From the NCBI GenBank assembly GCA_948144175.1, contig CANXME010002524.1, positions 1-64,000 on the forward strand: a stretch of 64,000 nt of DNA, written 5' to 3'. The DNA comes from Closterium sp. NIES-65. Taxonomy: Eukaryota; Streptophyta; Zygnematophyceae; Desmidiales; Closteriaceae. Position numbers and translations under genes: made by a program. Below, in pieces: positions 40,962 to 60,600 of the stretch (within the stretch, counting starts at the first letter, position 1; each line of letters starts with the position of its first letter). The notes beneath the pieces were generated by a model. The model saw only the letters and a list, made by a program, of their open reading frames with translations, had not been told where the DNA came from and searched no databases.

Positions 40962-43900
40962 ATGGGCGCCTTGCTCCCGAACGAGTCGCCGTCGCCGTCG
41001 CCGCGTCGCCACGAGTCGCAGAAGCGACGTGCGAATCCGTACATCGTCGCAGGCGCGTTGCTGGTCGTCGCATTCCTGGGCGTCCAGTACAACTCGTCGC
41101 GATCATGCGACACGGAGCTGCAGCTTCAGCGACAGGCTCCAGACGACTCCCCGGGCCGGTTATCCGCGTTACAGCCGTACTACGCTAAGGCGCAAAGCGC
41201 GCTCGATTCGGAGCTGTGCCGCGCGGAAGCGGCATACGCGGCGAATAAGGCGCGTCGCGTGGCGTCGTTTAACGGCCTCCTGCAGCCGGCCGTGCTGTCC
41301 GTTGCTGATATGCTGACTAAGGCCATCGCTCCCATGTACCCCTGCCCGCGCGAACAACGGCTTGGCGTGTGGGGGGAAGGCGGAAAGGTGAGAAAGGAGG
41401 GGTGGAAGAGGGGAATGGGAAAGGGTAAGGCACTGGGGACGGTGGAAGAGGAGTGGAAGGAAAATTGGGGTCGAGAGGGCGCAAGAGGGTGCGAGAGGGT
41501 GCGAGAGGGTGCGAGAGGGTGCGAGAGGGTGCGAGAGGGTGCGAGAGGGTGCGAGAGGGTGCGAGAGGGTTCGAGAGGGTGCGATAGGGTTCGAGAGGGT
41601 GCGAGAGGGTTCGAGAGGGTTCGATAGGGTGCGAGAGTGGGCAAAGGGGAAATGAAGTGGGAGAGGGATGGGAGGGTACTGGGTGGGGAGGAAGGGAATC
41701 AGCTGGCCGTGCTGTCCGTTCCTGATATTCTCACCTATTGCTCGCTCCCATGCCATTGAAGTAGTGTGCTGAGGCGTCTCAAAACACTACTTCATTCACG
41801 TGGCTGTCCGGTTCCTGCTATCTATCCTCACTATGGCTATTGCTCCCATGCACCCCTGCCCTCTCTTTCCTCCCTCGCCGCCCACTGTCTTTTGTCCCCT
41901 TCCCATTCCCAAGTCCCATCTCCCCCTCTTCCCATCCCTTCTTCCGATTCCCCCTTCCTTTCTGCTTTGTCTTCATGCACCCAATCCTACCTTCCCCACC
42001 CTCCACACTCTTGTTCTCCGAGGTGACTTTTGAGTCGACTCAAAAGTCCCCTTCCTTCCGGCATTGTCTTCATGCACCCAATCCTACCTTTCCCTCCCTC
42101 CACACTCTTGTTCTCCGGCAGTTGGCACCCCACCCCTTTTCCTTCCTCATCCTCCCCACCTCACCCCCTTCCCCCCCGCTCCTCCTCCCCACACTCTTGT
42201 TCTCCGGCAGTTGGCAACCCACCCCTTTCCCCTTCCTCATTCTCACCCCATCCTCCCCCCCTCTTCTCCCCCCCGCTCCTCCTCTCTCCCTCTTGTTCTA
42301 CTGCAGTGGGTCTGCATGCTGCCAACTGCCTTCGAAAACAAACCTGTAGTCTACAGGTGCGTGCGTGGGGGTGGCGGCGAGGAGGTTTGGGGAGGGAGGG
42401 GTGTTGACGTGTCTGTGGGTGGGTGGTGAGTCAAGGAGGGAGAGTCAAGTAGGGAGGGTCGAGCGTGCCTCTTCCCCTGACCCAATCATGCTCTGCGGCA
42501 ACTTTTGAGTCGACTCAGTCAAGGAAGGAGGGTCGAGCGTGTGTCTTTCCCCCAACAATCTTGCTCTGCGCCAATGGGTCTGCATGCTGCCACCTGCCTT
42601 TTAAACCAAGCCCTATTGTGTACAGGTGCGTGGGGGTGGGGGAAAAGATGGGTGTTTACGTGTATGTGGGTGGGTGAGTGGGTAGGTGGGTGTTAGTTGG
42701 AAAAGAGGGGGTCGGGCATGAATTTCTCTCCCGACCGCCTTCCACTCCACCTCACCCCTTCCGCATCCACTCCTCCCCCTTTTTCCTCCTACACCTCCTC
42801 CCATTACGACCAAGCCAGTGTGGGCAGCAAGGAGAGCTACTCGTTCGAGAATGTGCCACATTCATCCCCTTCCAACGCCCACAGCAAGGGCGCTGTACCC
42901 CTCACCTCACCTTCGACCCATTCATTCCCAAGAGGCGCAGCAACGCATGCTCACTCTCCCCCTCCTTCTGTTCCACCCCCCTTCCACCCCTTCCCCTTAC
43001 ATACAAGCCAGTGTGGGCAGCAAGGAGAGCTACTCGTTCGAGGAGGACATTGCCAAAGCCACAGGGGCCATACCGCTCACCTTCGACCCCTTCATTCCCC
43101 AAGACGCGCAGCAACGCATGCTCACCCTTCCCCTGCTTTTTTTCCCACATACGCCCCTGTCCCACCAAACAGTGTGGGCAGCAAGGAGAGCTACTCGTTT
43201 GAGGAGGACATCGCCAAAGCCACAGGGGCCGTACCGCTCACCTTCGACCCTTTCATCTCCCAAGAGGCGCAGCAACGCATGCTCGCCCTGCCCTTCCTCC
43301 GTTACTTCCCCGAAGGCCTTTCGGGCAGAGCAAAACTTTCCAAGAACAGAAAGATGTTTCCGAGCTACACCTTTTCGACTCTGCCCGAGGTGAGAAGAAA
43401 GCGGGTGAACTAATCTTTAAATGCATGCTTTATAGAGAGTGTTTTACATTTTTTTTTATTTGTTTTAACTGATACTCGTTCAAGTGGTGACAGCAAGCCT
43501 TTTCAGATGAGTGGTGATCAGAGGCGATAAGGGGTGATAGGTGGTGACAAGGGGTTATAAGGTGTGATACGGGATGATAAGGGATGATAACGGGTGATAT
43601 GGGGTGATGAGGGGAGATGAGGGGACATAAGGGGCGATGAGGGGTGAAACGGGGTGATATGGGGTGACACAGGGTGGTACGTGGTCATGACTGGTGATGA
43701 GGGGCCTGGATTGAGCGAACAATAGGTGGGGGGAATGGTGGAATCAAGTTCCCCAACCAAACCCCATGTTTAAGTCCGCTTCTTTCGTCACCAACCCTTC
43801 TTCCCCTTTCCGACTTCCAGCTCATGGCCACTCACAGCAGCACACGTGGATGTGCTCAAGATAGACTGCGAGGGGGTTCACCCCCTTCCTACCCCTCTCT

Positions 43901-45139
43901 GTTCCTCACCCTGTTCTCTCTCTCTCCCCCACCCCTGGCTCATGGCCACTCACAGCACTGATTACATGGAAGTGCTCAGGATAGACTGCGAGGGGTTCAC
44001 CCCCTTGTTACCCCACTCTTTCCTCATTGCTCACCCCCTTCTCTTCCCCACCCCCGCAGCTCATGGCCATGCACAACACAGACTACATGGATGTGCTCGA
44101 GATAGACTGCGAGGGGTGCGAGATCGAGATGATCCGAGACCCAACCTTTCCTCCTTTGGCGCTCCTTTCCCATCCACCCCCCTTTCAGCTCATGGCCACG
44201 CACAACACGGACTACATGGATGTGCTCAAGATAGACTGCGAGGGGTGCGAGATCGAGATGATCCAAGACCTCGAGCAGGCCATGGGTGGCGATTCCAGGG
44301 CCGGGCTTGTGCGGTTCGGAGGGAAGCTTCCATTCGGCCAGCTGCTGGTGGAGTTTCACAAGTGAGTTCCTTTTATCAACAATTTAGTTGTGTCCATGAG
44401 TGTTTTTTTTTTTTTCCTTCTTCCTCCACCAATTTTGAGGTGCCTAAATTTTTTTTTTTTTAAAAGAGGCGCCTAAAAAATCCTCAATAAGTGGCGTGGC
44501 ACTTGAAAGATGAGGCCCCCGAGGAAGGTGGCTGCTGTGCTGCTGTACCCCCCCCCCAAACCACGCTCCCACTTCCACGATTAAAAAAAAACAAAAACCG
44601 TACCCTCTCGCTCATCTTCCTCTTCTTTTCCTCCTGATTTCTCGTTCCTTCTATCCATCCTGCCCCCGCTAAACAGGATCCATGTCCTTAAGTCACACTA
44701 CTCATCTACACAATTGAAAATCCCAGATACTATTTTTTCCACATCGAAATCGTGTCCTCACTCACTCTTCCCTTCTCCCTTCTCTTTTCCATCTCCGTTT
44801 TTTCCCCTTCCCCTCTACCCCTCCTGCCAATACAGGATCCATGTTCCCAAAGTCACGCTGCCTCTCATATACGCAATCGAGAACCTCGGATACCGTATTT
44901 TCCATGTGGAAATGAATCCGCTCTGTTCCAAGTGTATGGAGGTGAGCTTTATACACGAGAGCCTGGTGCAACCTTCTAGCGAGGATGCCTGCTACGTAGA
45001 GGATGGCAACGGGAGTAGCACCACCAGCAGCAGTGGCGGGGGCGACAGTGGTGGCAGTGGCAGCAGTGACAGCAGCAACAGCATGGGCAACAATGAGAAG
45101 CCAGAAACAAAAGACCAGCAGGAGCAGCAGCAGCAGTAG
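40962..45139 (+). CDS. METTL24-like methyltransferase-domain protein, gene 1 (type II membrane protein)
   Basis: Five exons in phase: 40962-41387, 42307-42356, 43173-43389, 44189-44361 and 44836-45139, giving 389 residues. The N-terminus is a short cytosolic stretch followed by a signal anchor (YIVAGALLVVAFLGVQYN). The luminal part has YPCPREQRLG, WVCMLPTAF and the methyltransferase-core-like DYMDVLKIDCEGCEIEMIQD and GQLLVEFHK, then ENLGYRIFHVEMNPLC. This pattern is that of the Methyltransf_22/METTL24 family; substrate unknown. The C-terminal tail is Ser/Gly- then Gln-rich. It is paralogous, exon for exon, to the gene at 55476-61142, but has one intron more (between 43389 and 44189). Introns carry echo copies of every exon and three junction palindromes. 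Confidence 0.87.
41480..41640 (+). repeat. Decamer minisatellite in METTL24-like gene 1, intron 1
   Basis: About 15 copies of GCGAGAGGGT with a few GCGA/TCGA variants, directly downstream of the exon 1 donor region. Confidence 0.95.
41698..41860 (+). repeat. Exon echoes of METTL24-like gene 1, exon 1
   Basis: Two decayed copies (about 41703-41753 and 41800-41855) of the donor-side part of exon 1 (the PAVLSVADMLTKAIAPM segment). They are separated by a palindrome at 41757-41794. Confidence 0.8.
41757..41794. repeat. Junction palindrome 1
   Basis: 38 bp. Outer arms of 11 bp (TGAAGTAGTGT and complement) pair perfectly, with core TGAG-GCGT-CTCA. It lies between two tandem echo copies of exon 1. 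Confidence 0.85.
42025..42048. repeat. Junction palindrome 2
   Basis: 24-bp perfect palindrome with core TGAGTCGACTCA. It lies between two tandem copies of an intron block (about 41955-42022 and 42049-42117, both containing TCTTCATGCACCCAATCCTA). Confidence 0.88.
42501..42517. repeat. Junction palindrome 3
   Basis: Core TGAGTCGACTCA with only the left arm extended (ACTTT). It sits exactly between tandem copies 42444-42500 and 42518-42575, both running GTCAAG...GGGTCGAGCGTG to CTCTGCG. Confidence 0.85.
42577..43160 (+). repeat. Exon echoes of METTL24-like gene 1, exons 2 and 3
   Basis: 42577-42626 is a downstream copy of exon 2, with a stop in the frame. About 42816-42940 and 43010-43135 are two upstream copies of exon 3 (VGSKESYSFEEDIAKATGA, then FDPFI and AQQRML). 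Both end short of the donor side of the exon. Confidence 0.85.
43508..43700 (+). repeat. GGGGTGATA-type minisatellite in METTL24-like gene 1, intron 3
   Basis: Roughly 17 degenerate copies of a GGGGTGATAW unit, 9-12 bp long. Confidence 0.85.
43820..44760 (+). repeat. Exon echoes of METTL24-like gene 1, exons 4 and 5
   Basis: Three upstream copies of exon 4 at about 43821-43875, 43939-43995 and 44060-44147 repeat its acceptor side (LMATH...DYMDVLKIDCEG). They get longer and cleaner towards the complete exon at 44189. About 44675-44755 is a decayed upstream copy of exon 5 (GATCCATGT...). Confidence 0.85.
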
Positions 45140-46177
45140 CAGCAGCAGCCTAAAATTCAGCAGGAGCAGGAGCAGGAGCAGCAGCAGCAGCAGGAGCAGG
45201 AGCAGCAGCAGCAGCAGCAGCAGCCTGAAATTCAGCAGCAGCAGCAGTAGAAAAAAATCGGGCAAGAACTGCAGTCGCAGCAAGAGCAGCAGGGAGGGGA
45301 GTGAGGAAGGGTTGCTTAGAAATACCATAAGCAGGATTAGTTCGAAGCCACTTCCAAGATTTGCTTTCCATCCTTCTCCAAGCATCCACCTATCTGCTCG
45401 TGTTGTGTGTACTGGTCACTGCAGCAATAGAGTGGTATCCGGTCTAAACATGTATGCCTAATAAGTAAGCAAAAAACAAGTAGCACCTAGCAAAAGCTTG
45501 GGATGTAGAGAATTGTTGGTTGGCTAAGACTATCCTAAACCCTATGCATCACTACAAGCGTACATGCAGGTGGTACTATATGAACATGCTTCTACACACC
45601 AAAAATAGCATTTCATGCAATAAGCGTACGCTCACAAGACCAAACCCAAAATGGCACTGACTGGATTGATTCAACCTGAGACAGGTTGTACTGCTAGGAG
45701 TATACACCCACCCTCTTAGCCTCGCTGACATGAACACAACTGGCTTACATCATACAAACAGCTATGGTACCAGCTTTGACACTGCAAGTGCTGCTTGTGC
45801 TCTATAGAGCACAGTTTTCGTTATGGAAATTTTGTCGGTTGAGTTGGTAGGCTTCTTTTCTGCCCATTAGGCCACTCACAGCCTTCTGAGCGACCTGCTT
45901 CGAGCCACCTGCTTTGCAACTTCTTTTAACTGCTTTCTCTTCGTAACACAGCAGCCACATCATCCCCTCATCCTCCCGGATCCCCCCCCCACATCCCTCA
46001 TTTCCCCTCCTCAAAAGAACAGCACTGCAACGGATCTGTCATCTCTGGAGTTGGCGTGTTTCTCTGCTGCCCACTTGGCCATGGCTTTCTGAGCCACCTG
46101 CTTCGCCAGCAGCGATCAACCCTTTCCTCCACTCCGCCCCATCCCCCACCCCTCCATTCCCCACCCCAATTTCTCCT
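45140..46177. other. Convergent 3' region with two decaying copies of the PP2C last exon
   Basis: Between the stop of METTL24-like gene 1 (+) and the stop of PP2C (-). A CAG-rich run (45120-45250) follows the METTL24 stop. About 46020-46110 and 45812-45930 are copies of the donor-side/terminal part of the PP2C last exon (QVAQKAVAKWAAEKHANSRD). The nearer copy is well preserved and the farther one strongly decayed. Confidence 0.75.
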
Positions 46178-49100
46178 TTAAAAGAACAGCACTGCTACAG
46201 AAATATCGTCTCTGGAGTTGGCGTGTTTCTCCGCAGCCCACTTGGCCACGGCTTTCTGAGCCACCTGCTTCGCTGCTTTGCTCTTGGGCCATGTGTTTGC
46301 CACTATCTCCACCACCTCTGCATTCGACAGCACGTCCCACACCTGGGGGGTGGGGTGGAGAGGGGTGGAAGGAGGTTGTGTGAGATTGTTCTGGATTGAG
46401 GGGGGTTGTGAGTGGTTAGCACATCATCCCAGGAGCCATGTGCTGCTCTGCTCTTGCGCCATGTGTTTGCCACTACCTCCACCACCTCTGCATTCGACAG
46501 CACATCCCACACCTGTCAAGGGGGATTAGAGAGAGGCTATGGGGAGTGGAGGGCGGTTGCTTGCGGTTGGCAAGCGCATCACGCACACTTGCAACTGGAT
46601 CCCATCACTATCGGAGCAGAACGGAGGGCTTAAAGCGACGGTGCAAATTTGCCACCCGAAACCCAAAACCCTGCCGAACTGTTACTGCGGATGAAAAGTG
46701 TCCGCACGAAATCCTGGTTTTAGCCAGCCAACACTTTCGCGCTGGCAAGCCTGGTACAAACAAAAACTTCTGAAACTGACCCCGCCAAAAGTGCACCGTC
46801 GCTTTAAGCGATCCGACCGAAGCCATGACCGCGAATTAATCATTGGGGCCAATGCTGCGCACGGTAACATCAGACCTGCAGATGAGCCCATGTGACTAGG
46901 CGATGCCCAAAAGGGACTTGCCACAGGATTCTGATAAGGACATACAGCTTGATCATACAAGGGCAAGCAAGACGAATAGAGCACTCACCCCATCCAAAGC
47001 CATGACCACAAACTGATCCTTGGGGTCTATGTTGCGCAGGGTGACATGCAGATGAGCCCATGCGATCTGCTCTGGGACATGCACCCTACCAGAACAGAAT
47101 GAACAACAGACAAAACCACTCACCCCGTCCGAAGCCATCAAAACGAACTGGTTGTTGGGGTCTATGCAGCGCACTGTCACATCTGTTCTAGAAGTGAGCA
47201 TCAAAACGAGGAGTACACACCGTCTAAGATGACGGAATGTAGCGATGGCTGAAGCTCAGGTTCCGATCTTCCGGCCTAAGTCGGCGGAAATGGAAGATGG
47301 CTTTGAAGCTTACGAGGAGCGGATCGAGGGCGAGTCGTGGGATCACGGTGTCTGTGTTTTCGAGCCTCCCTGCAGTTAGCAGCCCAAATTTCGCGGGTAC
47401 AAGGGCGTGAACGACTTGGTCATCGCCACGCCTATCGAACAGCGCGTGACGGGTAGCCGCAGCGTATTCGACATCTCTCGCATCCCAACTGACTCTCTAA
47501 CGGTCAAGAGCTTTCTGGCGAAAGAGGACTGCGGGAAGCACCATGGGACGACGATGACGGGAAAATCTGCTCTTATTGCAATGCTTGTATCGTTGAGGAC
47601 GCTTGCATTGCAGCTGCTGGTGCTGGTGTTGCCGCGGCGCAGCATGCTAGTCTTGGGAATGGCGGTGCTATGCCATCGGACGGAAGCAGCAGCGGAGAGC
47701 CGCATAGGTCGGAGCGTGGCAGGGGGCAGCGGTCGCAAGTGTGCAGGGAGGTGAGGCCGGGCGACTCGACGACGGTGACATCCAGCCGGCAGATGAGCCC
47801 GTGCGATTTGAGCTCAAAGTCGCCAAAGGCATGCGCCACTGCCAGCCCCGGTGAGCAGAATGAACAGACCACCCACTCACCCCATTTGAATTCATGACCA
47901 CAAACTGGTCGTTGGGGTCTATGCTGCGCACAGTAACATCCGGCCGGCAGATGAGCCCGTGCGATATTCTGTGCAGGGGCTTCTATCCTAGTTCGGACTT
48001 ACAACATGTTCCTACAAAAGTGGAAAAGGACAAATGCACTCACCCCATCCGATGCCATGACCACGAACTGGTCGTTGGGGTCTATGCTGCAAACATTCAC
48101 ATCGGGCCGGCAGATGAGCCAGTGGGACTTGCATCCTAACAGGCCGCCCACCCACTCACCCCGTCCGAACCCATGACAACAAACTGGTCATTGGGATCTA
48201 TGCTGCGCACGGTCACATCAGGCCGGCAAATGAGTCCGAGCGATTTGAGCTCAAAGTCCCCAAAGGCGCGCGCCACTGCCAACAGATGAGCCGTGGGGCT
48301 TGCTGCTCCTTGCATCATAAAAGGCCGCCCAACCACCCACTCACCCCATCCAATGCCATGACCACGAACTGGTCGTTGGGGTCTAGAGTGCGCACAGTCA
48401 CGTCGGGCCAGACGATGAGCCCGTGCAATTTGTTGTGCTAATGGACTTCTATCCTACGGGGGAATCGCCACTGGATGCTAGTCTGGACTTACAGCCTGAT
48501 TAGATAAAAAGCAGAGCACAGCGGATGGACCACTCACCCCATCGGAACCCATGACCACTCACCCCATCGGAGCCCATGACCACGAACTGGTCGTTGGGGT
48601 CTAGAGAGCGAACAGTCACATCGGGCCGGCATATGAGCCCATGGGATTTGAGCTCGAAGTCTCCGAAGGCGCGCGCCACTGCCAGCCCCGGCTCACTCTT
48701 TCCCGGCAGGAAGATTCTGTCGATGGTGTTCATGTAGTTGAGGACTTTCCCTCCTGCTTCCTGCACTCGTGCCTTCTCAGCTGCGATGGAGTGGTGGGGG
48801 GGACAAGATGGGACGGAAGGGGAGGGATGAGAGAAAAGGCGGGTAGATTCTGTCGATGGTGTTCATGTAGTTGAGGACTTTCCCTCCTGCTTCCTGCACC
48901 CACACCTTCTCAGCTGTTGAGGAGGGTGGGATGATGAGGGGGGGTTAGGGTGGTGGGGAGAGACAAGGAAGATTCTGTCGATGGTGTTGATGCAGTTGCC
49001 CGCCTCCTGCACCCGCACCTTCTCCGCTCTGATGGTGGGGAAGGGGGAGAGGCCGATAGATTCGACCGTCAGGGTAATTGACGGGGAGCTGGCGTACATG

Positions 49101-52100
49101 TAACCGAGCAGCTTCGTTCTGCTCATTCGGGGACTTTCGACTCTCAAAAGCCACTCTCCCCCACCTTCCCACCCCTCCTTCCCGCACCACACCCTCCTCC
49201 CCTTTCCACTCAGCTCACAGCATCTCACCGGGGTTGCTCGCCTTGTGGTCGATGGTCAGCTGAACAGCCTCTATGGTCGCCCTAATGTTTGCTCTCCTCA
49301 TTGGGGGAGTGACTCACCTCAGCACAGCATTAACCCTTTCCCGCCTGCCCACCCCTCTTTCCCATACCACACTTTCTCCCCTCCCACTTAGCTCCTTTCT
49401 CACCTGGGTTGCTCGCCTTGTGGTCGATGGTCAGCTGAACAGCCTCCATGGTCGCCCCAACACAGACCCTACTACTGTCTCCACTCCCCTCCCCCACACC
49501 CTGCTCTCACCTGGGTTGCTCGCCTTGTGGTCGATGGTCAGCTGAACAGCCTCCATTGTCGCCTCGCCGCATCACAGATCATACTCCCCTCGCCCCACAC
49601 CCTTCCCCCACATCCTGCTCGTCCACGCCACACCCACATTGTCTCACCTGGGTTGCTCGCCTTGTGGTCGATGGTCAGCTGAACGGCCTCCATTGTCGCT
49701 GCATCACTCTTGCCGTTGGGACCCCTGGCAATGCGAGCCAGCACACAGCGGGAATCCCCTATGTGTGCCACTATCAGCTCCGAGCCCTGAAAGACAGAAG
49801 GGGCGCGGGGCAAAAAGGGGAGTGCAGTGAGGAAAGGTGATCTCTGGCAGTGCGAGCAAGCACACAGTGGGAATCCCCTATGTGTGCCACTATCAGTTTC
49901 GATCCCTGAGAGACAGAAGGGAAGGGAAGAAACGGTGGTGTGGTGGCAGTGCGAGCGAGCACACAGCGGGAATCACCTATATGTGCCACTATCAGCTCCG
50001 AGCCCTGAGAAAGTGAGGTACGGAGGGGAGGGGAGGGTCGAGGAGGGAAGGGAGGGGAGGGTGAACGGGAGGGACGGGGACAAGGAGGGAATATGCCAAG
50101 GACAAGGAGCCCTGGCAGTGCGAGCGAGCGAGCACACAGTGCGAGTCCCCTATGTGCGCCATTACCAGTTCCGATCCTGAGTATGTGAGGCGGGGAGGCG
50201 AGGGAGGGGAGGGTGTGGCTGTTAAGGGGTAAGGAGCGAATGGGGGGCCATCACTCTTCCCGTTAGGAGCTCTGGCAGTGCAGGCGAGCACACAGCGTGA
50301 GTCACGCATGTGTGCCACTATCAGATCCGAGCCTTGAAACAAGGGGCACAGTGGAGAGTGTGTGGGCGGGGTAACGAGGGAATGTGGCCAGGAAACGTGA
50401 GTTCTGGCAGTGCAGTGCAGTGCAGTGCAGTGCAGTGCAGGGCAGTGCGGGCGAGCAGCACAAGTCTCCTATGTGCGTCGGTATCAGATCCGATCCTTGA
50501 AACGTGGAGTGGAGTGGAGTGGAGTGGAGTGGAGTGGAGTGGGGTGGGGTGGAGTGGGGTGGAGTGGAGTGGGGTGGAGTGGGGTGGAGTAGAGTGGGGT
50601 GGAGTGGAGTGGAGTGGAGTGCGTGTGTGACAAGAGAGAGCCCAGATACAAAGCAGCAGAGAGCGAGAAAAAGGTGTCTCACAAGACGTAGGGCAACAAT
50701 AGCAGTAGACCCACTGTCCCTGTTGTGGAACAGGTCCTTCCTCAACTCCTCATCAAGGTCCCCAAACACCCCACCGAACATCACCCAAAAAACCCGGCAC
50801 AGAGAGAGCAGCAGGTAGAGACAGAGAGAGAGATCACTCATGAGTGACGAGCCTGAGAGAGAGAGATCACTCATGAGTGACGAGCCTGAGAGTGAGAGAT
50901 CACTCATGAGTGACGAGCCTGAGAGAGAGAGATCACTCATGAGTGACGAGCCTGAGAGTGAGAGATCACTCATGAGTGACGAGCCTGAGAGAGAGAGATC
51001 ACTCATGAGTGACGAGCCTGAGAGTGAGAGATCACTCATGAGTGACGAGCCTGAGAGTGAGAGATCACTCATGAGTGACGAGCCTGAGAGTGAGAGATCA
51101 CTCATGAGTGACGAGCCTGAGAGAGAGAGATCACTCATGAGTGACGAGCCTGAGAGTGAGAGATCACTCATGAGTGACGAGCCTGAGAGTGAGAGACGAG
51201 AGAATTGACTCACGAGGCGGAGGGCGACGACTGCCGTAGACCCGCTGTCCCTGTTGTGGAACAGGTCCTTCCTCAGCTCCTCATCAATGTCCCCAAGTAC
51301 GCCCCCACACACCCGCACACAGCCACCCAGTGAGGAAAGTAGCAGCAGAACGAGAGGGAGAGAGAGAGAATCCACTCACGTGGCGGAGGGCAACAACAGC
51401 AGTGGAGCCGCTGTCCCTGTTGTGAAACAGGTCCTTCCTCAGCTCCTCATCAATGTCCCCAAACACGTCCCCAAACACCCACGCCCACACGTCCCACCCA
51501 ATGACCAGAGCAGCTGAGACAGAGGCACGACAAACCCACTTACAAGGCGGAGGGCGACAACTGCAGTGGAGCCGCTGTCCCTGTTGTGAAACAGGTCCTT
51601 CCTCAGCTCCTCGTCAATGTCCCCAAACACCCCGCCAAACACCCGCGCCCACACATCCCTTGCCGCAGCCCCGTCCACGTGGGCGAGCTCGTTCTGGGTG
51701 TGCTGCACGGCTGTGTTGAGTCGCTCTGGCAGCTGGTCGCGAGCTGTCTTGGACACGTAGTGACCGGATAGACCGTGCCCGTCAAACACCCCCACCAGCG
51801 CACTGCCTCGTTCCCCACTTGTGCTTGTGACTATCAGGTTCTGCGGGAAGGGTGGTGGGGCGTGGGGAGGGGTGGGGAGGGGTGAGGGGTTTATATGACG
51901 TGGGGTTGGGGGGATGAGGGGATGGGGAGGTAAGGCGCACACACCACACGTCCCTTGCCGCAGCCCCGTCCACGTGGGCGAGCTCGTTCTGGGTGTGCTG
52001 CACGGCTGCATTGAGTCGCTCTGGCAGCTGGTCGCGAGCTGTCTTGGACACGTAGTGCCCCGACAAGCCGTGCCCGTCAAACACCCCCACCAGCGCACTG

Positions 52101-53716
52101 CCTCTCTCCCCAGTTGTGCTTGTGACTATCAGGTTCTGTGGGTGCGTGGGGGGGCATGGGAAGGGGTGGGACGGAGGAAGGACAACCTGTGCCCGTCAAA
52201 CACGCCCACCAGCGCACTGCCTCTCTCCCCAGTTGTGCTTGTGACTATCAGGTTCTGGGGGTGCGTGGGGGGGCATGGGAAGGGGTGGGACGGAGGAAGG
52301 ACAGCCTGTGCCTGTCAAACACCCCCACCAGCGCACTGCCTCTCTCCCCAGTTGTGCTTGTGACTATAAGGTTCTGTGGTTGGGGTGAGGAGGAATGGGA
52401 GGGAGGTAGTGGCAGGTGAGGGTATGTGAGGGTGGGAGGAGCACCGGATGGGGGGGGAATAAGAAGTGGGGTTGATAGTGGCGTTCTCGGGTTGACGTGG
52501 CCGAATAAGCCATGCCTGTCAAACACCCCCAGCAGCGCACTGCCTCCCTCCCCTGATGTGCTTGTGACTATTAGGTTCTGTGGTTGGGTGGGGGGAGAGG
52601 AGTGCGAGAGGATGGGGGGGAAAGAGAGGCAGGGTGGGGAGGAAGGAGCGGGGTTGAGGGTGGTGGCTCTGATGGGTGGTCGTCTTCTCTCGAAGAGCAA
52701 AAACGGTCAAAAGAACTGCCTTGGAGACGAGTGGGTCGCCCGACAGATCATGCCATTTTGTTCGAGGTTGATTTTTAGAATTCTCAGAATCAACCTCAAA
52801 CAAAAAAGAACTGCCTTGGAGACGTGTGGCCCAACAGGTCGTGCCTGTCAAACTAGCGCATTCCCCCACCAGCGCATCTCCCACTCTCCGCAACTGTGTC
52901 TCACAGGATGAGATTACGCAGTTGAGTGGGCAGGTGGGAGCGGGGTAGGATGGGGGATGGGGGGGTGGATGGAATCTGGGATGGGGGTTGGGGAGAGGAG
53001 GGGTTGAGGGTGGTGGGTGGGACTGATAGGTGTCCATCCACTGGTGTGGGGACGAGCAAACACGGCCGAGTCTTAGACGTTCGCCCTTTGAATAACGCAG
53101 TTGCGGGACAACACTCACACTTCTGTCTCTCCTCACCTCTGGCAAGGGCTGGGCCGAGTCTTGACATACAACATCCAATTTACGCAGTTGCGGGTCAACA
53201 CTCAAACCTCTGACTCTCCTCACCTCTGTGGCAAGTGCTGAGTCTTGACATACACCCTTGAGGCCAGGCTGCACAAAGATCACCGAGTTCTTGGTGGATC
53301 CTGGCAAAGCAGTACGGGATAACACTCACACTTCTGGATCTCCTCACCTCTGTGGCAAGGGCCGAGTCTTGACATACGCCCTTGAGGCCGGGCTGCACAA
53401 AGATCACCGAGTTCTTGGTGGACCCTGGCGAAGGCATTGCGGGGGAGAAAAAAACGAGTAGAATGAGATGGATTTAGCTTCAGCTGGAGCTGATACTTCG
53501 AGCCCGGACGGGCACAGGACCAAAAAGATAAAAGAGACACAATTTTGAGAAAGAGACAACAGCTTTGAAGTAATCGTTCGCGTCAGACTGAAACGGGATC
53601 GATTCTTGCCATCATTCTTAACCGTCAAATGCTTGTCAAATAGTTACGAGCGGAGTAACAGAAGCCTCACCTACGTCTTTGTTGATAACCCCGTCTTTAG
53701 ATGATCCGTTTCCCAT
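46178..53716 (-). CDS. Protein phosphatase 2C, N-myristoylated, plant group-E-like
   Basis: Metal-dependent Ser/Thr phosphatase. Main exons: 53716-53671 (MGNGSSKDG, a clear N-myristoylation signal), 53424-53348 (IFVQPGLKGVCQDSALATE, the GxxQD metal motif), 51840-51544 (VGVFDGHGLSGHYV to DSGSTAVVALRL), about 49787-49648 (IVAHIGDSRCVLA to LTIDHKASNP), about 48790-48565 (EKARVQEAGGKV, GLAVARAFGDFELKSHGLI, LDPNDQFVVMGSDG) and about 46345-46178 (VWDVLSNAEVVEIVANTW to SRDDISVAVLFF, stop TAA). Metal-binding Asp residues are present in QD, DGHG, SDG and DDI. The motif set matches plant PP2Cs of the ARAFGDFxLK type. Each exon is surrounded by partial copies of itself, and one intron contains a JmjN fragment and another a MITE. 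Which copies are spliced is inferred. Confidence 0.88.
46435..46525 (-). repeat. Upstream echo of the PP2C last exon
   Basis: A copy of the acceptor side of the last exon (VWDVLSNAEVVEVVANTW), with a CAG acceptor, lying upstream of the complete exon. Confidence 0.85.
46628..46809. mobile_element. MITE-like element in a PP2C intron
   Basis: About 182 bp with terminal inverted repeats GCTTAAAGCGACGGTGCA (46628-46646) and its near-exact complement (about 46791-46809). The interior has no coding potential and is unlike the flanking exon echoes. No certain target duplication is visible. Small size and terminal inverted repeats fit a non-autonomous DNA transposon of unassigned superfamily. Confidence 0.65.
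46830..48420 (-). repeat. Downstream echoes of the PP2C exon ending SDG
   Basis: At least seven copies of the donor-side part of exon 48790-48565 (RPDVTVRSLDPNDQFVVMGS), at about 46840-46890, 46985-47050, 47120-47185, 47875-47955, 48030-48120, 48150-48270 and 48345-48415. Most keep a GTGAGT-like donor. The copies differ from one another by several substitutions each. Confidence 0.85.
47245..47740 (+). pseudogene. Fragment of a JmjN/JmjC (KDM4-like) histone demethylase gene, antisense in a PP2C intron
   Basis: From an ATG at 47245 the plus strand reads AEAQVPIFRPKSAEMEDGFE, matching the JmjN signature (P-x-F-x-P, acidic, aromatic). After a stop at 47377 the same frame continues with YKGVNDLVIATPIEQRVTG and TDSLTVKSFLA. 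In KDM4-type demethylases this is the linker after JmjN (compare DMVIPAPIQQVVTG...MTVKEF). Only the first part of such a gene is present; the JmjC catalytic domain is absent. The fragment sits between two PP2C exon echoes, in the opposite orientation. It could be a truncated retrocopy or a translocated gene start. Function is not expected. Confidence 0.7.
48835..49050 (-). repeat. Upstream echoes of the PP2C exon ending SDG
   Basis: Two copies (about 48840-48915 and 48960-49035) of the acceptor-side part KVRVQEAGGKVLNYMNTIDR, both upstream of the complete exon at 48790-48565. Confidence 0.85.
49220..50340 (-). repeat. Echoes of PP2C exon 49787-49648 on both sides
   Basis: Downstream copies at about 49225-49272, 49405-49455 and 49505-49560 repeat the donor-side MEAVQLTIDHKASNPG. 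Upstream copies at about 49835-49905, 49935-50005, 50110-50178 and 50265-50335 repeat the acceptor-side SELIVAHIGDSRCVLAR. The split by side is complete. Confidence 0.85.
50407..50440 (+). repeat. (GCAGT)n pentanucleotide tract
   Basis: Six to seven GCAGT units in a PP2C intron, inside an exon-echo region. Confidence 0.9.
50503..50627 (+). repeat. (GGAGT)n pentanucleotide tract
   Basis: About 25 units of GGAGT with GGGGT variants. Confidence 0.95.
50680..51480 (-). repeat. Downstream echoes of PP2C exon 51840-51544
   Basis: Three copies of the donor-side part (DEELRKDLFHNRDSGSTAVV) at about 50680-50760, 51215-51300 and 51380-51480. A 33-bp minisatellite lies between the first two. Confidence 0.88.
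50840..51202. repeat. 33-bp minisatellite, 11 copies, each with a 14-bp perfect palindrome
   Basis: Eleven near-identical 33-bp units, each with the palindrome TCACTCATGAGTGA and a GAGCCTGAGAG linker that varies only by AGAG/AGTG. The unit is a multiple of three and open on both strands (MSDEPERERSL on plus, SLSGSSLMSDL on minus), but it sits in an intron with no splice context. Confidence 0.95.
51955..52910 (-). repeat. Upstream echoes of PP2C exon 51840-51544
   Basis: Five copies of the acceptor side (NLIVTSTSGERGSALVGVFD, GHGLSGH). The longest is at about 51958-52138, shorter ones at about 52195-52255, 52318-52377 and 52500-52577, and a decayed one at about 52845-52910. Confidence 0.87.
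52764..52797. repeat. Junction palindrome 4
   Basis: 34-bp imperfect palindrome with arms GAGGTTGATT/AATCAACCTC and centre GAATTC. It lies between tandem copies at about 52709-52755 and 52801-52846 (AAAGAACTGCCTTGGAGACG...). It lacks the TGAG-N4-CTCA core of the others. Confidence 0.8.
53135..53424 (-). repeat. Duplicated 77-nt PP2C exon 2 plus a partial third copy
   Basis: 53424-53348 and 53300-53224 are both 77 nt with CAG acceptor and GTGAGG donor, and both encode STKNSVIFVQPGLKGVCQDS. About 53135-53175 is a decayed donor-side piece. Since 77 is not a multiple of three, only one copy can be used per transcript. Confidence 0.85.
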
Positions 53717-55334
53717 ATTGAACCGAGTATCGTCAGCTCTGAAGCGTGGGACGAATAAAACTGTACTCCAGCAACGACTGCTGAGGGGGGTGCTTCTTGC
53801 AGACTACTGCTCGCTAGTAACGACGGCTGACAGGGTAGTTCGCTATAATTACAGGTCAAAAACAGCTGCTATTCTTTTGACAAAAGCTGGAACGTAACAC
53901 TGCCCAGATGGCTGCAAAGCCTCTCGGAAAATGAATACTGGGCTGATACGCTCGGCAGAATGTTGTGTCAGGGATGGCTGGGTGAGAAAGGACACAGTTG
54001 TAAAAAAATAAATAAATAAAGGTTTTCTGGAGAAAGGACGAGTGAGCTGAGGAAACAATTACTACAAAAGCCGTGCAGACAAAACCGAACTCGAAGGTAT
54101 CAATAAGGTAGTTGACATGCCACGCATGTCGGAAGCAGGTACAGCGCGTATTCCAGCAAAGAATAAGTATTTGCAAGAATTCATTAACTAGGACATCAAA
54201 TAGTCCTTCAATGCGCTTGCGAAAAAAAGTACTGGAAACTGCTTACGTTTTCGCACTCAGCGATTAGAGGTAGTAACAGCTTAGTGATTCTTCAGGTAGT
54301 AACGGAATCGTGCAGAAGCGTCGGAGAGAAACGTCTGTGATCTGAATTCACACCCCGGTGCGCGTAGGCCTTCAATAGTTACCTAGGATGTTCGGATCAT
54401 CAATCTTGTACCTAGGAAACTCTGCGCTACTTACTAAGAGCTCAAATTTCATCCCTGTTGTCTCGGCAAAGTCAAGGTCGTTTCCGTCGCACAGCGTCGC
54501 AGGGAGAGTCTCAGGTAGTCGCGCATTCGGTCCCTCCCTGCATTCTTTCTGCTTGAAGGCATCGTCGTCAGGCAGCCAGTTTTTGCAGTCGCAGAACCCA
54601 AGCGACGTCCCCCTTCGTCGAACCTGGGTCAAATGACCAGTCCGCTTCCGTGCCGTGCCCTTTCAGATTCTCTCTGCGACGTTGACGATGCCAAGTCAGC
54701 GCGCGGTGTGCTTGACTTCTGTGACAGACGAATGTGAACAGTCGGTTAGCGAACGTGCATATCCTTCGCCGAACAACTCCTCCAGTTTATTGGCAGCTGA
54801 AATTCGCACAAACGCGCCTGATTGGTTAGCCGTCACCTTTCCACAACAGCTGGGAACCCCATATACGCCTACCTTGAATTAAGACAACTAGCTTTGAAAT
54901 GTAGCCCATGCTAATAATAGTGCTTGATTCTTAGGCTGCCATCTCAGCCACTAACATACCCTATACATATTAGGAGCACACATATCATCGTAACAGATGC
55001 AAACTTATTGTGTATGGCATGCTTTGATCACAACCTTTTGACGTGCATAACTTTCTACAAGGCTATAACATAGCATGATGAAAAAAGGTGGTTTCACAAT
55101 GAAACAATGCCAATTGAACCTGGGTACGATGCCGTACATCGATTCCGCGCGAGCAGAGGGGTTTGGGGGGATTACGCACCACCACTGTCGTCACCGCCAT
55201 CACCACCATCACCACCACCATCACCACCAGTAGCGCCTACACTACTACCACTGCTGCTGCAAGCTTCACCGCCGCTGCTGCCAGCGTCAGCACTGCTGCT
55301 GCCACTCTTTACCCCCGCTCCACACCCGGCAACA
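53717..55334. other. Intergenic between PP2C and METTL24-like gene 2
   Basis: The 5' flank of PP2C, AT-rich sequence and one possible small coding exon (separate entry). Nothing else is recognised. Confidence 0.5.
54372..54632 (-). CDS. Hypothetical 86-codon frame
   Basis: Minus-strand frame starting MTQVRRRGTSLGFCDCKNWL and containing CREGPNARLPETLP. Composition is balanced, not low complexity. A GTAACT sequence near its end could be a donor, making it a first exon, but no matching next exon is evident. Family not recognised; it may be chance. Confidence 0.2.
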   Translation of the reverse strand: MTQVRRRGTSLGFCDCKNWLPDDDAFKQKECREGPNARLPETLPATLCDGNDLDFAETTGMKFELLVSSAEFPRYKIDDPNILGNY

Positions 55335-55450
55335 TCATCGCAGGCATGGATGGAACTGCCGCAGCACAGCCCCACAGTCGAGGCTGAGAGGAGGCACCAC
55401 CAAGTCCTCGTGCACAAATGCCACCTCGATGCATGGTACATAGCGGGTTG
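55335..55450 (-). repeat. Downstream echo of METTL24-like gene 2, last exon
   Basis: A decayed copy of the later part of the last exon (NPLC...HR, then LDCGAVLR-like). It lies downstream of the complete exon, beyond the low-complexity tail. Confidence 0.75.
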
Positions 55451-55475
55451 GCCTTGGGGTTGGGGTTGGGATCAC

Positions 55476-57597
55476 TTATGCACCATCATCCCCTCCCCCT
55501 TCCCCTCCCCCTTCCGCTTCCCCTCCCCCTTCCGCTTCCCCTCCCCCTTCCGCTTCCCCTCCCCCTTCCGCTTCCCCTCCCCCTTCCGCTTCCTCTCCCC
55601 CTTCCGCTTCCCCTCCCCCTTCCCCTTCCCTTTCTCCTCCCTCTCCTCCTCCCGCTCCCCCTCCCCCTCCCCCTCCCCCTCCCCCTCCCCCTCCCTCTCC
55701 CCCTCCCCCTCCCCCTCCCCCTCCCTCTCCCCCTCCCCCTCCCCCTCCCCCTCCCCCTCCCCCTCCCCCTCCCCCACCTCCTCCCCCTCCTGCTGCCCAT
55801 CCCCCCCCTCCTCCAGGCAGCCACTGCGCAACATAGTCCGAAACCTGAGACCGCCGCAGCACACCCGCACAGTCAAGGCTCAAGGGCGGAACCACCAGGT
55901 CTTCATGTATAAACGCCACCTCGATGCACGGGTAGCACAGCGGGTTGGGCTCCACGTGGAACATGCGGTACCCCATGCCCTCCATGGCGTACAAGTAGGG
56001 AAGGGACTGTTGGGGTTTGTGCATGCTGGAAGAGGGGAGGGAGGTGGGGGGGGAGAAGGGGGGAGGGAGGACAGCGGGTTGGGCTCCACATGGAACATGC
56101 GGTTCCCCATGCCCTCCATGGCGTACAAGTAAGGGAGGGAGTGCTGGGGCTTGTGCATATGCTGTAGCATTGGGGACAGAGTCACAGAGGGGATGGGGGA
56201 AAGCAGGGGAGGGGGTCAGCACGGGTAGCACAGCGGGAAGGGCTCCACATGGAACATGCGGTACCCCATGCCTTCCATCGCATACAGGTAGGGCAGGAAG
56301 TGCAAGGGCTTGTGCATGGTGGGTTGAGTAAGGGAGGAAGGGCGGGAGATGGGGGAGAGAGAGTGTGTGAGCGAGGGCGGTAGACTGGGAAGGCGGTTCC
56401 ATCGATGCACGAGTAGCACAGCGGGTGGGGCTCCACGTGAAACATGTGGTACCCCATGCCCTCCAAGGCGTAGAGACGGGGGCTTGTGCATCCTGTGGTA
56501 AGGGGAGGAAGGGGAGGGGGGAGGGGGAAAAGGGGGATGTGGTGGGTTGGGCTCCACGTGCAACATGCGGTACCCCATACCCTCCATGGCGTGGAGAAAT
56601 GGGAGGGAGTGCTGGGGCTTGTGCATGCTGTTGTGTGGGGGAAAAGGGGTGGCAGTGGCACCAGGGAGGGGAACATGGGAGGGAGAGACTGTGAGGGGGG
56701 CACAGCAGGTTGGGCTCCACATGAAACATGCGGTACCCCATTCCTTCCATGGCGTAGAGATATGGGAGGGACTGCTGGGGCTTGTGCATGCTGTGGTAAT
56801 GAGGAAAAGAGGGGGCAGGGGATGGGAGGGAGGAACTAAAGCAAGAACGGGGTTGTGTGAGAAGCAGGCTTGAGATCAAACATGCATTTCCCTTCCCCCC
56901 AGTCACCACCACCTTTGCATCCCTTCCAGGAGTGTGTGAACACAAGATTTTACAGAGACTCACGTGTGAAACTCCACAAGCAGTTGCCCAAACAGCAGGT
57001 TCCCCCCATTTATCACCAGCTTCGCATCTCTTATGAGTGTGTGAAAAGTGAACACAAGAGGTTAGACCAACTCACTAAAGAAACACTCACGCGTGAAACT
57101 CCACAAGAAGCTGTCCAAACAGCAGATTCCCCCCATTTATCACCAGCTTCGCATCCCCCCTCCCCCTCCTCTTCCCCTCCTTCTCCTCCTCAGTCAACGC
57201 CCCTCCCTCCTTCCTCCGCCTCTCCACAAATTCCTCAGTCTCCCTCTTCATCCCCATAATAAACTCCTCCTCACACCCCTCACAGTCCATTTTCAGCACA
57301 TCCACATACTCATGCCCTAGTTTCTTCATCGCCTCTTGCAGAGTCATAAAGGTGATCCCGGGGTTTTCGTCTCGGAATTTTTCGAGGCTTGCTGCGCCGG
57401 CGATGGCTATTTCGTTGAAGTGGAGGAAGGGGAGGGCGTGCATGTGAGCAGTGGCGTTGGCGGAGAGGAATGGGTCGAAGGTGAATGGCTTGGTGTGCAG
57501 CGCAGCGCCGATGGCCTGCTCGAAGTCGTACTGCTCGTTGCTACCCACACTGGGAGAGGGGATGGGGGGGGGGGGGGGGGGGGGGGGGAGAGGGAGG

Positions 57598-57634
<37 letters not shown>

Positions 57635-60600
57635 ATGGAGGGAGGGAGGGAGACAGAGAGGGAATAATTTCGTTGAAGTGGAGGAAGGGGAGGGCGTGCA
57701 TGTGAGCAGTGGCGTTGGCGGAGAGGAATGGGTCGAAGGTGAATGGCTTGGTGTGCAGCGCCGCGCCCATGGCCTGCTCAAAGTCGTACTGCTCGTTGCT
57801 ACCCACACTGGGAGAGGGAGGGGAGAGGGGGGGGGGGCGGAGGAGGGGAGCAGAGTGGAGTTGAGGGTGTGGAGAGGACCTGTGGGACGCCTCAAGAGGA
57901 GAGCAGCGGCAATAGCCTTCTCAAGGTCGTACTGCTCCTTGCTGCCCGCACTGGGAGGAAAGGGGGGAAGCGGGGGAGGGGAGCAGAGTGGAGTTGAGGG
58001 TGTGGAGTGGACATGTGGGACGCCTCAAGAGGAGAGCAGCGGCAATAGCCTTCTCAAAGTCGTACTGCTCCTAGCTGCCCACACTGGGAGGTGGGGAGAT
58101 GGGGGAAGGCTAATGGCTCTGGCATGGTTTATGGCTCTGGCATGGCTGATGGTTCTGGCATGGCTGATGGCTCTGGCATGGCTGATGGCTCTGGCATGGT
58201 AAATGATTATGGCATGGGCTAATAATTATGGCTTGTGATGTGATCCTGGCATGGCGATTACCCGTCTCAGATACCCAATGCCATGGCATGGCGATGACCC
58301 ATGTCTCAGATACCCAATGCCATACCTGAACACAGCATTGTTGTGTGGAATGCTGGCGTGTCATACCTGCACATGGGATATTGAGCGCACCTAACCGGTC
58401 CTGAGTTGACTTTTGAGTTGACTCAAAAGTCAACAGGGTTGTGTGGAATACTGGCGTGACATACCTGCACATGGGATGACGAGCGCACCTAACCTGTCCT
58501 GCACTACACACGCCAGAGATTGTTGGTTGAGGTGGCTTTTCAGTTGGAGCAGGGTTCGGAGGCAACACTCCACACAGCTTACCTGATTTTTGAGGCGCCT
58601 CAAAAATAGTTGGAGCAGGCAGGGTTTTGAGGCAACACTCCACACAGCTTACCTGTACACTACAGGGTTATCTCGGATCGCAGTTGGAAGCATGCATACC
58701 CACTGAAGCGGAATTCAAGGAGAGGGAGAGGCAGGGGAGGAGAGAGAAGGGAGAGGGGAGGGAGGATTTTAGTTGGCAGTATGCATACAGCATACATACT
58801 GCAGTGGATAGAAAGGTGAGGGAGAGGCAGGGGAGGAGAGAGGAGGGCGAGGGGGGAGGATATTTGTTGGCAGTATGCATACAGCATACATACTGCAGTG
58901 GAAAGCAAGGTGAGGGAGAGGCAGGATGGGAGAGAGGAGGGAGAGAGGGGAGGGGGTTAGTAGTTGGCAGCATGCACACCCACTGCAGTGGATAGTAAGG
59001 TGAGGGAGAGGCAGGGGAGGAGAGGAGGGAGAGAGGAAGGGGGTTAGTTGGCATGGCAGCATGCATACACACAGTAAGGTGAGGGAGAGGAAGGGGGAGA
59101 GAGGGAGAGGGTTGGAAGGCAGCAGGCACACCCACTGCAGTGGAGATCAATTCAAAGTTAGGGGTGAGAAGCGGGGGCGAGGGATGGGGCTGCGAACGCT
59201 TCAGTGAGGTTCAGTGAGGTTCAGTGAGGTAAGGGGACGAAACGATCATCTCTGCGTTAACCAGTTAACCCTCCCTAAACTTCTTACACTCCCTGCATCG
59301 CCATCCCCTACCCATCCCCCTAGCTCCTCTCCTCCCCCTCATCCCCATCGCCCAACCGCCTCACCTTCCCATCCCCCCTTGCACCCGCTCTCTCCTCTTC
59401 CGGGCAAGGGTAAGTGGGCATGAGCACAGGCAGCAGCAGAGACGGGTAGGCAAGATAACCCCAACATGGACCTCCCCTTTCCCGCTGCTCACCTTCCCGC
59501 CATCCCCCCACGCAAACACTCGCTCCTCTGCGGGGCATGGGTAAGTGGGCATGAGCATTGAAAGACCGGCGGTGGAGACAGCAGAGGGGGGTAGGGGGTC
59601 ACCGAAAGAACCTTTTGAGTCGACTCAAAAGGCAGAGGGGGGTAGGGAGTAACCGAAAGATCCCAATCAATCCCTCCCCGGACTACCCTTACCTTCCCGC
59701 CATCCCCCCACGCGCCCACTCGCTCCTCTGCAGGGCAAGGGTAAGTGGGCATGAGCACAGACAGCAGCAGCTGCGGCAGGTCATATGCGTCCATGGGCCA
59801 CTGATCCCCGTTATGAGCTGCTTTTCTACGCTCTATATCAGCCTGTAAGGAGGTGCGGAGGGGAGCAAAGAGAAAATTGGCGGGGGGAGGGAGGGATGGG
59901 GGATGGGAACAGCAAAGCAGAGACGGCAGGTCGTGTGCGTGCATGGGCCACTGATCCCCGTTATGAGCTGCCTTCCTTCTATCTATGTCAGCCTGGGGGT
60001 AGGTGGGAGGGGAGGGGCGGGAGGAGGGGGGGAAGGGGGGGGGGAGGGGGGAGAGAGGGAGGCAGGGGAAATGGACAGCAGCAGCGAGTGCAGGTCGTGT
60101 GCGTCCATGGGCCACTGGTCCACGTTATGAGCTGCCTCCCTACGCTCTATATCAGCCTGGGGAGACGGGAGGGCACGTGGGGGCGAGGGGAGGGAGGGGA
60201 ACGGAGGGAGAAAGGTGGGGAAAGGGAGTCGGGACGGGAAGAGTAAAAAGGGTTGGAGGGGAGGGGAGGGGAGGGGGAATGGGGAGCAGCAAAGTACAGA
60301 TGGCAGGTAGCATTGCATGCATCCACGGATCACTAATCCCCGTTATGAGCTGCCTCACGTCTCGCTATACTGGCCTGCGCGATAAGAGGGAAACATGAGG
60401 GGGAGCAATGGGTGAGGAAAGGGGTTCGGGGGAAGAGGGGGGGGAGGAGGAGAGGGAGGAAGAGGGGGGGGAGTGTATAGGGGGGTTGTGGAGGATCGAG
60501 AGCAGCAGAGACTGCAAGACATAAACATGCGCCGAGGGAAACTAATCCCCGTTATAAGCCCCTTCCCTACGGTCCATGCTTGGCTGGGGAAGACGGGAAA

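What the first reader, a model, noticed from the sequence alone, without database searches (positions are those of the whole stretch)
41757..59632. Short palindromes sit exactly at junctions between tandem copies
Seven palindromes (41757-41794, 42025-42048, 42501-42517, 52764-52797, 58405-58434, 58586-58607, 59611-59632) each separate two adjacent diverged copies of the same block with little or no sequence left over. Six share the core TGAG-N4-CTCA, while the outer arms differ. Several palindromes are still perfect although the flanking copies differ at many positions. This suggests a sequence-specific step in making or stabilising the duplications (hairpin-capped ends, fold-back synthesis, or a tiny palindromic insertion that seeds duplication).
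Basis: partly seen in the sequence, partly recalled or inferred. Interest (0 to 1): 0.93.

Follow-up and report, generated by a model that had tools for sequence, protein, structure and literature searches.

The report
Tiny mobile palindromes duplicating their targets
The seven palindromes belong to a very abundant family of tiny hairpin-shaped DNA insertions in a green alga, and each insertion appears to copy the stretch of DNA it lands in, so the palindrome ends up sitting between two copies.

Summary
In detail: all seven palindromes lie between bounded direct repeats. The window is from a Closterium-like alga. In its 874-Mb assembly the exact 18-mer TTTTGAGTCGACTCAAAA occurs 13,080 times and TTTTGAGAATTCTCAAAA 2,601 times (reversed controls 0). 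In 312 kb read, 38 of 49 isolated sites sit between bounded duplications, against 9 of 247 shifted and 24 of 700 random points. Of 61 perfect palindromes (arms 9 bp or more), 56 carry the core and 54 have flanking repeats; the 5 without the core have none. One paralog shows one target copy and no palindrome; a second case shows the downstream junction only. So these are insertions of about 15-50 bp with long, variable target duplications (11-108 bp), some recent, some grown into arrays. No longer element was found. The machinery is unknown; my best guess is a LINE- or Penelope-type enzyme inserting a short self-complementary template. Ten literature searches showed no description.

The parts
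41754..41802 (.). Inserted palindrome 1 (centre GCGT; core 41767-41784)
41711..41753 (.). Target copy, left of palindrome 1 (38/49 with right copy)
41803..41851 (.). Target copy, right of palindrome 1
42021..42047 (.). Inserted palindrome 2 (AGGTGAC-core-GT, centre TCGA)
41951..42020 (.). Target copy, left of palindrome 2 (65/70)
42048..42117 (.). Target copy, right of palindrome 2
42502..42516 (.). Inserted palindrome 3, right arm truncated inside the core (centre TCGA)
42443..42501 (.). Target copy, left of palindrome 3 (48/59)
42517..42574 (.). Target copy, right of palindrome 3
52755..52803 (.). Inserted palindrome 4, AATT family with long arms; right arm shared with the insertion at L030:7102
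52709..52754 (.). Target copy, left of palindrome 4 (38/46)
52804..52845 (.). Target copy, right of palindrome 4
58404..58437 (.). Inserted palindrome 5 (GTTGAC arms, centre TTGA); 58403-58434 recurs at 100% on eight other contigs among the listed matches
58340..58403 (.). Target copy, left of palindrome 5 (58/64)
58438..58501 (.). Target copy, right of palindrome 5
58586..58607 (.). Inserted palindrome 6 (centre GCGC), abutting both copies
58542..58585 (.). Target copy, left of palindrome 6
58608..58655 (.). Target copy, right of palindrome 6
59613..59631 (.). Inserted palindrome 7 (core plus G, centre TCGA; the outer CC/GG may belong to the target)
59581..59612 (.). Target copy, left of palindrome 7 (29/32)
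59632..59663 (.). Target copy, right of palindrome 7

Best explanation
SHOWN: the palindromes are members of a dispersed, high-copy family (core TTTTGAG-N4-CTCAAAA, N4 mostly self-complementary; arms up to about 23 nt, of which two sets, GAGGTGAC and the long AATT arms, recur between insertions). Each sits, as a unit of about 15-50 bp, between two copies of an 11-108 bp target block, and at least one paralog has one block and no palindrome. INFERRED: a break with widely staggered nicks leaves long single-stranded target ends; a short self-complementary nucleic acid (a hairpin RNA copied by reverse transcriptase, or a hairpin DNA) is copied or joined into the gap; filling in both ends makes the duplication. 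Arms of the same sequence on both sides, truncated independently, are easiest to explain if either end of a self-complementary template can be used, or if the copy self-primes. I favour a LINE- or Penelope-type reverse transcriptase/endonuclease acting in trans. Secondary: some insertions became [target-palindrome]n arrays, probably by unequal exchange.
For: Copy number 13,080 and 2,601 for two exact cores, reversed controls 0. Bounded duplications at 38 of 49 isolated sites, against 9/247 shifted and 24/700 random points; at a looser threshold with arrays counted once, 51/62 against 64/361 and 87/700. All 4 core hits in 50 kb not centred on a known site, but on the same contigs, have repeats at the loose threshold, one of them weakly (65 of 83 positions). 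56 of 61 perfect palindromes carry the core (array units counted singly); repeats at 54, none at the 5 without core. Empty site: L014:3972 against L011 (82%); partial: L013:6300 against tandem-exon paralogs at 76-80%. Target length median 43, IQR 28-67, 49 sites. Same arm consensus on both sides (33 sites), arm lengths nearly independent, r = 0.21 over 39 sites. A 14-nt arm shared exactly by two insertions. Half-site without its mirror is rare: 6 of 107 TTTTGAGTC, both strands, in 262 kb. 9 of 45 isolated sites have identical target copies, others differ by up to about 25%.
Against: No enzyme, transcript or RNA has been linked to the family, and no driver search was run. No target motif emerged from 33 sites. 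Junction microhomology (19 of 32 junctions, permuted mean 9.2) does not count: maximal extension of the repeat makes about 44-50% expected by my own estimate. In 3 of 19 young insertions the two outer arms are not fully complementary (4 of 52 pairs). Only one clear empty site; in the second the upstream flank hardly aligns, so it shows one target block joined to the downstream flank. The window site at 58.4 kb and L013:6300 otherwise gave only identical copies that keep the insertion. 11 of 49 isolated sites fail the bounded test, and tandem repeats are common here without palindromes. Most of the sample (L010-L029) was chosen because it held the exact core.
Confidence: 0.57

Rival explanations
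1. Miniature DNA transposon (MITE): the two halves are terminal inverted repeats of a cut-and-paste element with almost no interior, moved by a DDE transposase.
For: Inverted-repeat structure, flanking duplications, high copy number.
Against: Duplication length varies from 11 to 108 bp, whereas such transposases make a fixed short one (established knowledge). Half-sites with an interior are rare: 6 of 107 stand alone; genome-wide AGGTGACTTTTGAGTC followed by a base other than G occurs 258 times, about four fifths of the 100 listed places being followed by A, which I read as CpG decay of the TCGA centre without having seen the next bases.
Confidence: 0.09
2. Capture of preformed hairpin DNA fragments, for example cut from existing palindromes, as filler during repair of breaks with long overhangs, without a dedicated enzyme.
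For: Repair of breaks with protruding 3' ends makes tandem duplications (PMC5730883, passages). Alike trimming of both arms. Composite inserts at L015:2577, L015:5032, L018:4519, L026:4210.
Against: Capture of any fragment should also insert other palindromes, but only core palindromes carry the repeats (54 of 56 against 0 of 5). Truncation into the core is rare: of 7 further 10-bp centres, two (window 42507, L029:495) look cut down; I did not search for non-palindromic inserts between duplications.
Confidence: 0.25
3. Telomerase-like synthesis: both 3' ends of a staggered break are extended on the same short RNA template and the two identical ends are joined head to head, giving a palindrome.
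For: Self-complementary centres (43 of 49 isolated sites), independent arm lengths, one head-to-tail repeat of a 17-nt half unit (L018:4519).
Against: Centres are coupled: TCGA, ACGT, GCGC, AATT make 80 of 92, mixed GCGT 2 of 92. The genome-wide count of a mixed centre did not complete. An asymmetric TTGA-centred copy recurs exactly, though CpG decay could explain that.
Confidence: 0.15
4. Palindromes inserted into, or arose at, junctions of pre-existing tandem duplications.
For: The genome has many tandem duplications without palindromes.
Against: A paralog with a single target copy and no palindrome, a partial second case; shifted points next to the sites are rarely at bounded duplications (9 of 247).
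Confidence: 0.06
5. Assembly or library artefact.
For: The assembly holds identical second copies of the 461 bp at 58260-58720 and of L013:6140-6480.
Against: Target copies differ by 0 to about 25% between loci, which an artefact would not produce; several related cores.
Confidence: 0.02

Closest known systems
Mobile palindromic GC clusters of yeast mitochondria (GC42 and relatives; PMC4478555, passages seen)
   Same: Very short, palindromic, mobile, multi-copy, flanked by a putative target duplication, mechanism unsettled, merged and shuffled copies.
   Different: Mitochondrial; duplication of only AG or ACT; here duplications of 11-108 bp in an 874-Mb assembly, with an unrelated core sequence.
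Mitochondrial double-hairpin elements and palindromic repeats of fungi and algae (PMC7218506, passages seen; Paquin 2000 only as a citation there)
   Same: Optional short palindromes taken as mobile.
   Different: Organellar; the passages I saw mention no target duplications.
Penelope-like retroelements with palindromes at inverted junctions (bdelloid rotifers; PMC3846280, passages seen)
   Same: 18- and 38-bp palindromes, target duplications, self-priming proposed by the authors; a possible enzyme source.
   Different: Those palindromes are part of elements with pseudo-LTRs of about 190-220 bp; target duplications given in the passages are 8-10 bp or absent; no such element was looked for here.
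Tandem duplications from repair of staggered breaks (PMC5730883, passages seen)
   Same: Overhangs filled in give direct repeats.
   Different: No conserved insert; here the junctions carry the same core.
MITEs and TIR transposons (established knowledge)
   Same: Inverted repeats and target duplication.
   Different: Fixed-length duplication and an interior; neither seen here.

Membership tests
Cut-and-paste TIR transposon / MITE | Target-site duplication of fixed short length | tested here: not met
   11-108 bp, median 43, 49 sites
Cut-and-paste TIR transposon / MITE | Longer relatives with the same terminal inverted repeats around an interior | tested here: not met
   6 of 107 half-sites stand alone in 262 kb; genome-wide, 258 hits of one half-site not followed by G, of which 100 were listed, about four fifths with A; surroundings of those hits not read
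LINE/SINE-type retroposon (target-primed) | Variable-length target duplications | tested here: met
LINE/SINE-type retroposon (target-primed) | A 3' tail or one fixed end with 5' truncation | tested here: not met
   Both sides truncate alike around the centre; no tail
LINE/SINE-type retroposon (target-primed) | Transcript serving as template | not testable with these tools
   No RNA data; Rfam at gathering scores found no family in the window
Penelope-like element | Reverse transcriptase with GIY-YIG endonuclease and pseudo-LTRs | not tested
   The genome search tool was mostly unreachable and no driver search was run
Mobile palindromic cluster (mitochondrial type) | Short palindromic mobile unit in an organelle genome | tested here: not met
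   Unit is met, location is not: sites lie in an 874-Mb assembly; the window's own sites share a contig with gene-like frames and Ty1/copia frames
Insertion with target-site duplication (any mobile element) | Paralogous empty site with one target copy | tested here: met
   One clear locus, one showing the downstream junction only; none found for the window locus tried

The most novel reading that the evidence does not exclude
A new class of nuclear mobile element: a palindrome of about 18-50 bp, with no coding capacity and no longer form, that has spread to over 15,000 exact-core copies and makes long, variable target duplications, by a dedicated nick-and-copy machine that treats both arms of a hairpin template alike. 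It would be among the smallest mobile units known and a steady source of local tandem duplications.
Probability: 0.4. Interest if true: 0.93.

Novelty: new variant of a known kind. Interest (0 to 1): 0.86.

Why it matters
If right, very short sequences without genes can spread through a nuclear genome by insertion and leave a tandem duplication at each landing site. That gives a concrete, countable cause for a share of the small tandem duplications in an alga related to land plants, shows how minisatellite-like arrays can start, and gives a ready assay (find what nicks and copies the core) for a transposition mechanism that fits none of the standard classes tested here.

Tried and rejected
Chance: rejected. 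Re-paired flanks as a control (71 of 83 sites against 3 of 245) proved too lenient, because local tandem repeats are common; replaced by shifted and random points and the bounded test. Preserved palindromes: rejected. Junction microhomology: first P below 0.001, then withdrawn because the permutation ignores maximal extension of the repeat. Target-site motif: none seen with 33 sites. TIR element with interior: not found. Hits outside the alga: CTTTTGAGTYGACTCAAAAG gave 0 in viral contigs and 5 in prokaryotic contigs, all without flanking repeats; unrelated. Long-range target copies to explain the 15 sites (of those with up to 2 mismatches) below threshold: no alignment abutting the core within 900 bp. 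Protein-level empty sites in another strain: reading frames listed, not pursued.

Genome-wide counts for any N4 centre, for ACGT, GCGC and the mixed TCGT centre, and an empty-site search for L027:4354, were asked and not answered.

Full report
SETTING. The window is eukaryotic. The only homologue (E up to 0.001) of a gene fragment at 57090-57491 (- strand), among 33 candidates, is a protein of Closterium sp. Naga37s-1, 86% identical. The window also holds two Ty1/copia polyprotein frames. The assembly has 874,075,685 bases in 2400 contigs, the window being C2226:1-64000.

OBSERVATION. In a scan for zero-loop palindromes, six of the seven, one 18-bp palindrome at 45796 and an (AT)n stretch stand out; palindrome 3 fell below that scan's score because its right arm is cut short. 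All seven are flanked by two copies of a target block, T, bounded on both sides. Four exact TTTTGAG-N4-CTCAAAA sites occur in the window where resamples give none; two of the other palindromes have 2 mismatches to it and the truncated one 3.

GENOME-WIDE. The exact core with centre TCGA occurs 13,080 times and with centre AATT 2,601 times; the reversed control patterns occur 0 times. The patterns are self-complementary, so each place is counted once. Among the places listed (only the first of each count), C6 has 11 in 154 kb, several in an array, and C10 has 3 in 2.03 Mb, so the spread is uneven. Some are arrays with constant spacing (37, 63, 64, 77 bp); those I read (37, 64, 77) are [T-palindrome]n.

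FLANKS. I read 20 stretches around listed sites (198 kb), 5 stretches on the same contigs not centred on a site (50 kb) and the window: 311,827 bases. Of 92 core hits with up to two mismatches in the first 198 kb, 80 have one of four self-complementary centres: TCGA 55, ACGT 12, GCGC 7, AATT 6. With arrays counted once, 51 of 62 sites have abutting direct repeats at score 12 or more, against 64 of 361 points shifted by 500-900 bp and 87 of 700 random points. The background is high because this genome is rich in tandem repeats. When the repeat must also be bounded on both sides, 38 of 49 isolated sites pass, against 9 of 247 shifted and 24 of 700 random points (Fisher P about 2e-29 and 2e-37). 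In the 50 kb not centred on a site there were 4 core hits, all 4 with repeats at the looser threshold. A complementary test starts from palindromes: of 61 perfect ones with arms of 9 bp or more, array units counted singly, 56 have the core, 54 have flanking repeats, and the five without the core have none.

INSERTION, NOT JUST DUPLICATION. Joined-flank queries from 83 sites with repeats were compared with the 21 sequences then held. Two sites gave spanning hits: L012:4041, which lies in a satellite array and tells nothing, and L014:3972, whose paralog in L011 (82% over 102 bp) has one T of 20 bp and no palindrome. A genome search with L013:6300 (T 60/60 identical) found two identical copies with the insertion on C1658 and C347, and tandem-exon paralogs at 76-80% in which a single T runs into the downstream flank without the palindrome; their upstream flank hardly aligns, so this is half of an empty site. 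The window locus 58260-58720 gave only an identical second copy, on C2039.

ANATOMY. T has median 43 bp, interquartile range 28-67, range 11-108 (49 sites; flanks of 120 bp cap the upper end). Inserts are 19-48 bp, median 27, in the 39 sites with arms of at most 16; the window adds 15 and 49. Outward from the core both sides follow roughly the same consensus, C-A-G-T-G-G-A, that is GAGGTGAC before the core and its mirror after it (33 sites). The two arm lengths are nearly independent (r = 0.21). The AATT-family insertion at 52755-52803 and an unrelated one at L030:7102 share the 14-nt right arm TCAACCTCAAACAA exactly, so these arms belong to the element and not to the target. Truncation rarely reaches into the core. 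Four inserts are composites of more than one unit (L015:2577, L015:5032, L018:4519, L026:4210).

AGE. Over 45 isolated sites the two T copies differ at 185 of 2238 positions and the core pairs mismatch at 26 of 405; 9 pairs of T are identical. The palindrome decays with its flanks, and some insertions look recent. Half-sites not followed by G are followed by A at about four fifths of the 100 listed places of 258, as decay of the CpG in the TCGA centre would give; the number followed by G was not counted.

MECHANISM. Variable, long T suggests two nicks far apart on opposite strands, later filled in; repair of breaks with protruding 3' ends is known to give tandem duplications (PMC5730883, passages). 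What is special here is the constant insert. I think a reverse transcriptase with endonuclease copies a short self-complementary template into the break. Penelope-like elements of bdelloid rotifers have 18- and 38-bp palindromes and the authors infer self-priming (PMC3846280, passages), which makes them a candidate source, untested here. Rivals are hairpin-DNA capture and telomerase-like extension of both ends. None of these steps has been shown.

KNOWN OR NEW. The nearest published things I saw are mobile palindromic clusters of mitochondria, with target duplications of AG or ACT (PMC4478555, passages), and fungal or algal mitochondrial palindromes (PMC7218506, passages). Ten literature searches, judged from their listings, showed no description of this family in Closterium or of nuclear palindromes with such duplications; the library is open-access only. 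The Closterium genome paper in the library (PMC10407611, abstract and 12 of 28 passages) reports 47-64% repeats; those passages do not mention palindromes.

LIMITS. The genome search tool answered 5 requests; counts for other centres and further empty sites are missing. The sample is mostly site-selected. No RNA, read or strain data were available.

Noticed in passing
window 43818-44246, 51208-51659, 52062-52376, 53197-53433, 57772-58090, 58717-59072: Tandem duplications, several with exon-like reading frames (PP2C-like and methyltransferase-like by eye), hold none of the palindromes: a second duplication process, or one whose insert is gone.
   Followed up: partly
window 41000-46500 (+) and 55500-61200 (-): Two inverted gene-like regions, both methyltransferase-like by eye (P0001, homologue of one, carries Pfam PF13383), both with tandem copies and palindromes; the first 41 kb of the window, with copia frames, has no core hit with up to 2 mismatches.
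   Followed up: partly
window 58260-58720: An identical 461-bp copy lies at C2039:1629363, so part of the window is duplicated in the assembly (second haplotype or duplicate contig).
   Followed up: no
L013:4991-5156, L021:6135-6320, L028:4898-5171, L029:4831-5134: Arrays of [target-palindrome] units with mostly 37-77 bp period, as if an insertion can seed a minisatellite.
   Followed up: partly
L012:4041-5642: A 28-bp satellite with a palindrome near one end.
   Followed up: no
window 42028, 59613 and elsewhere: In one frame the TCGA core reads FESTQ(K) and has no stop, and being self-complementary it does so on both strands, so insertions can leave a frame open.
   Followed up: no
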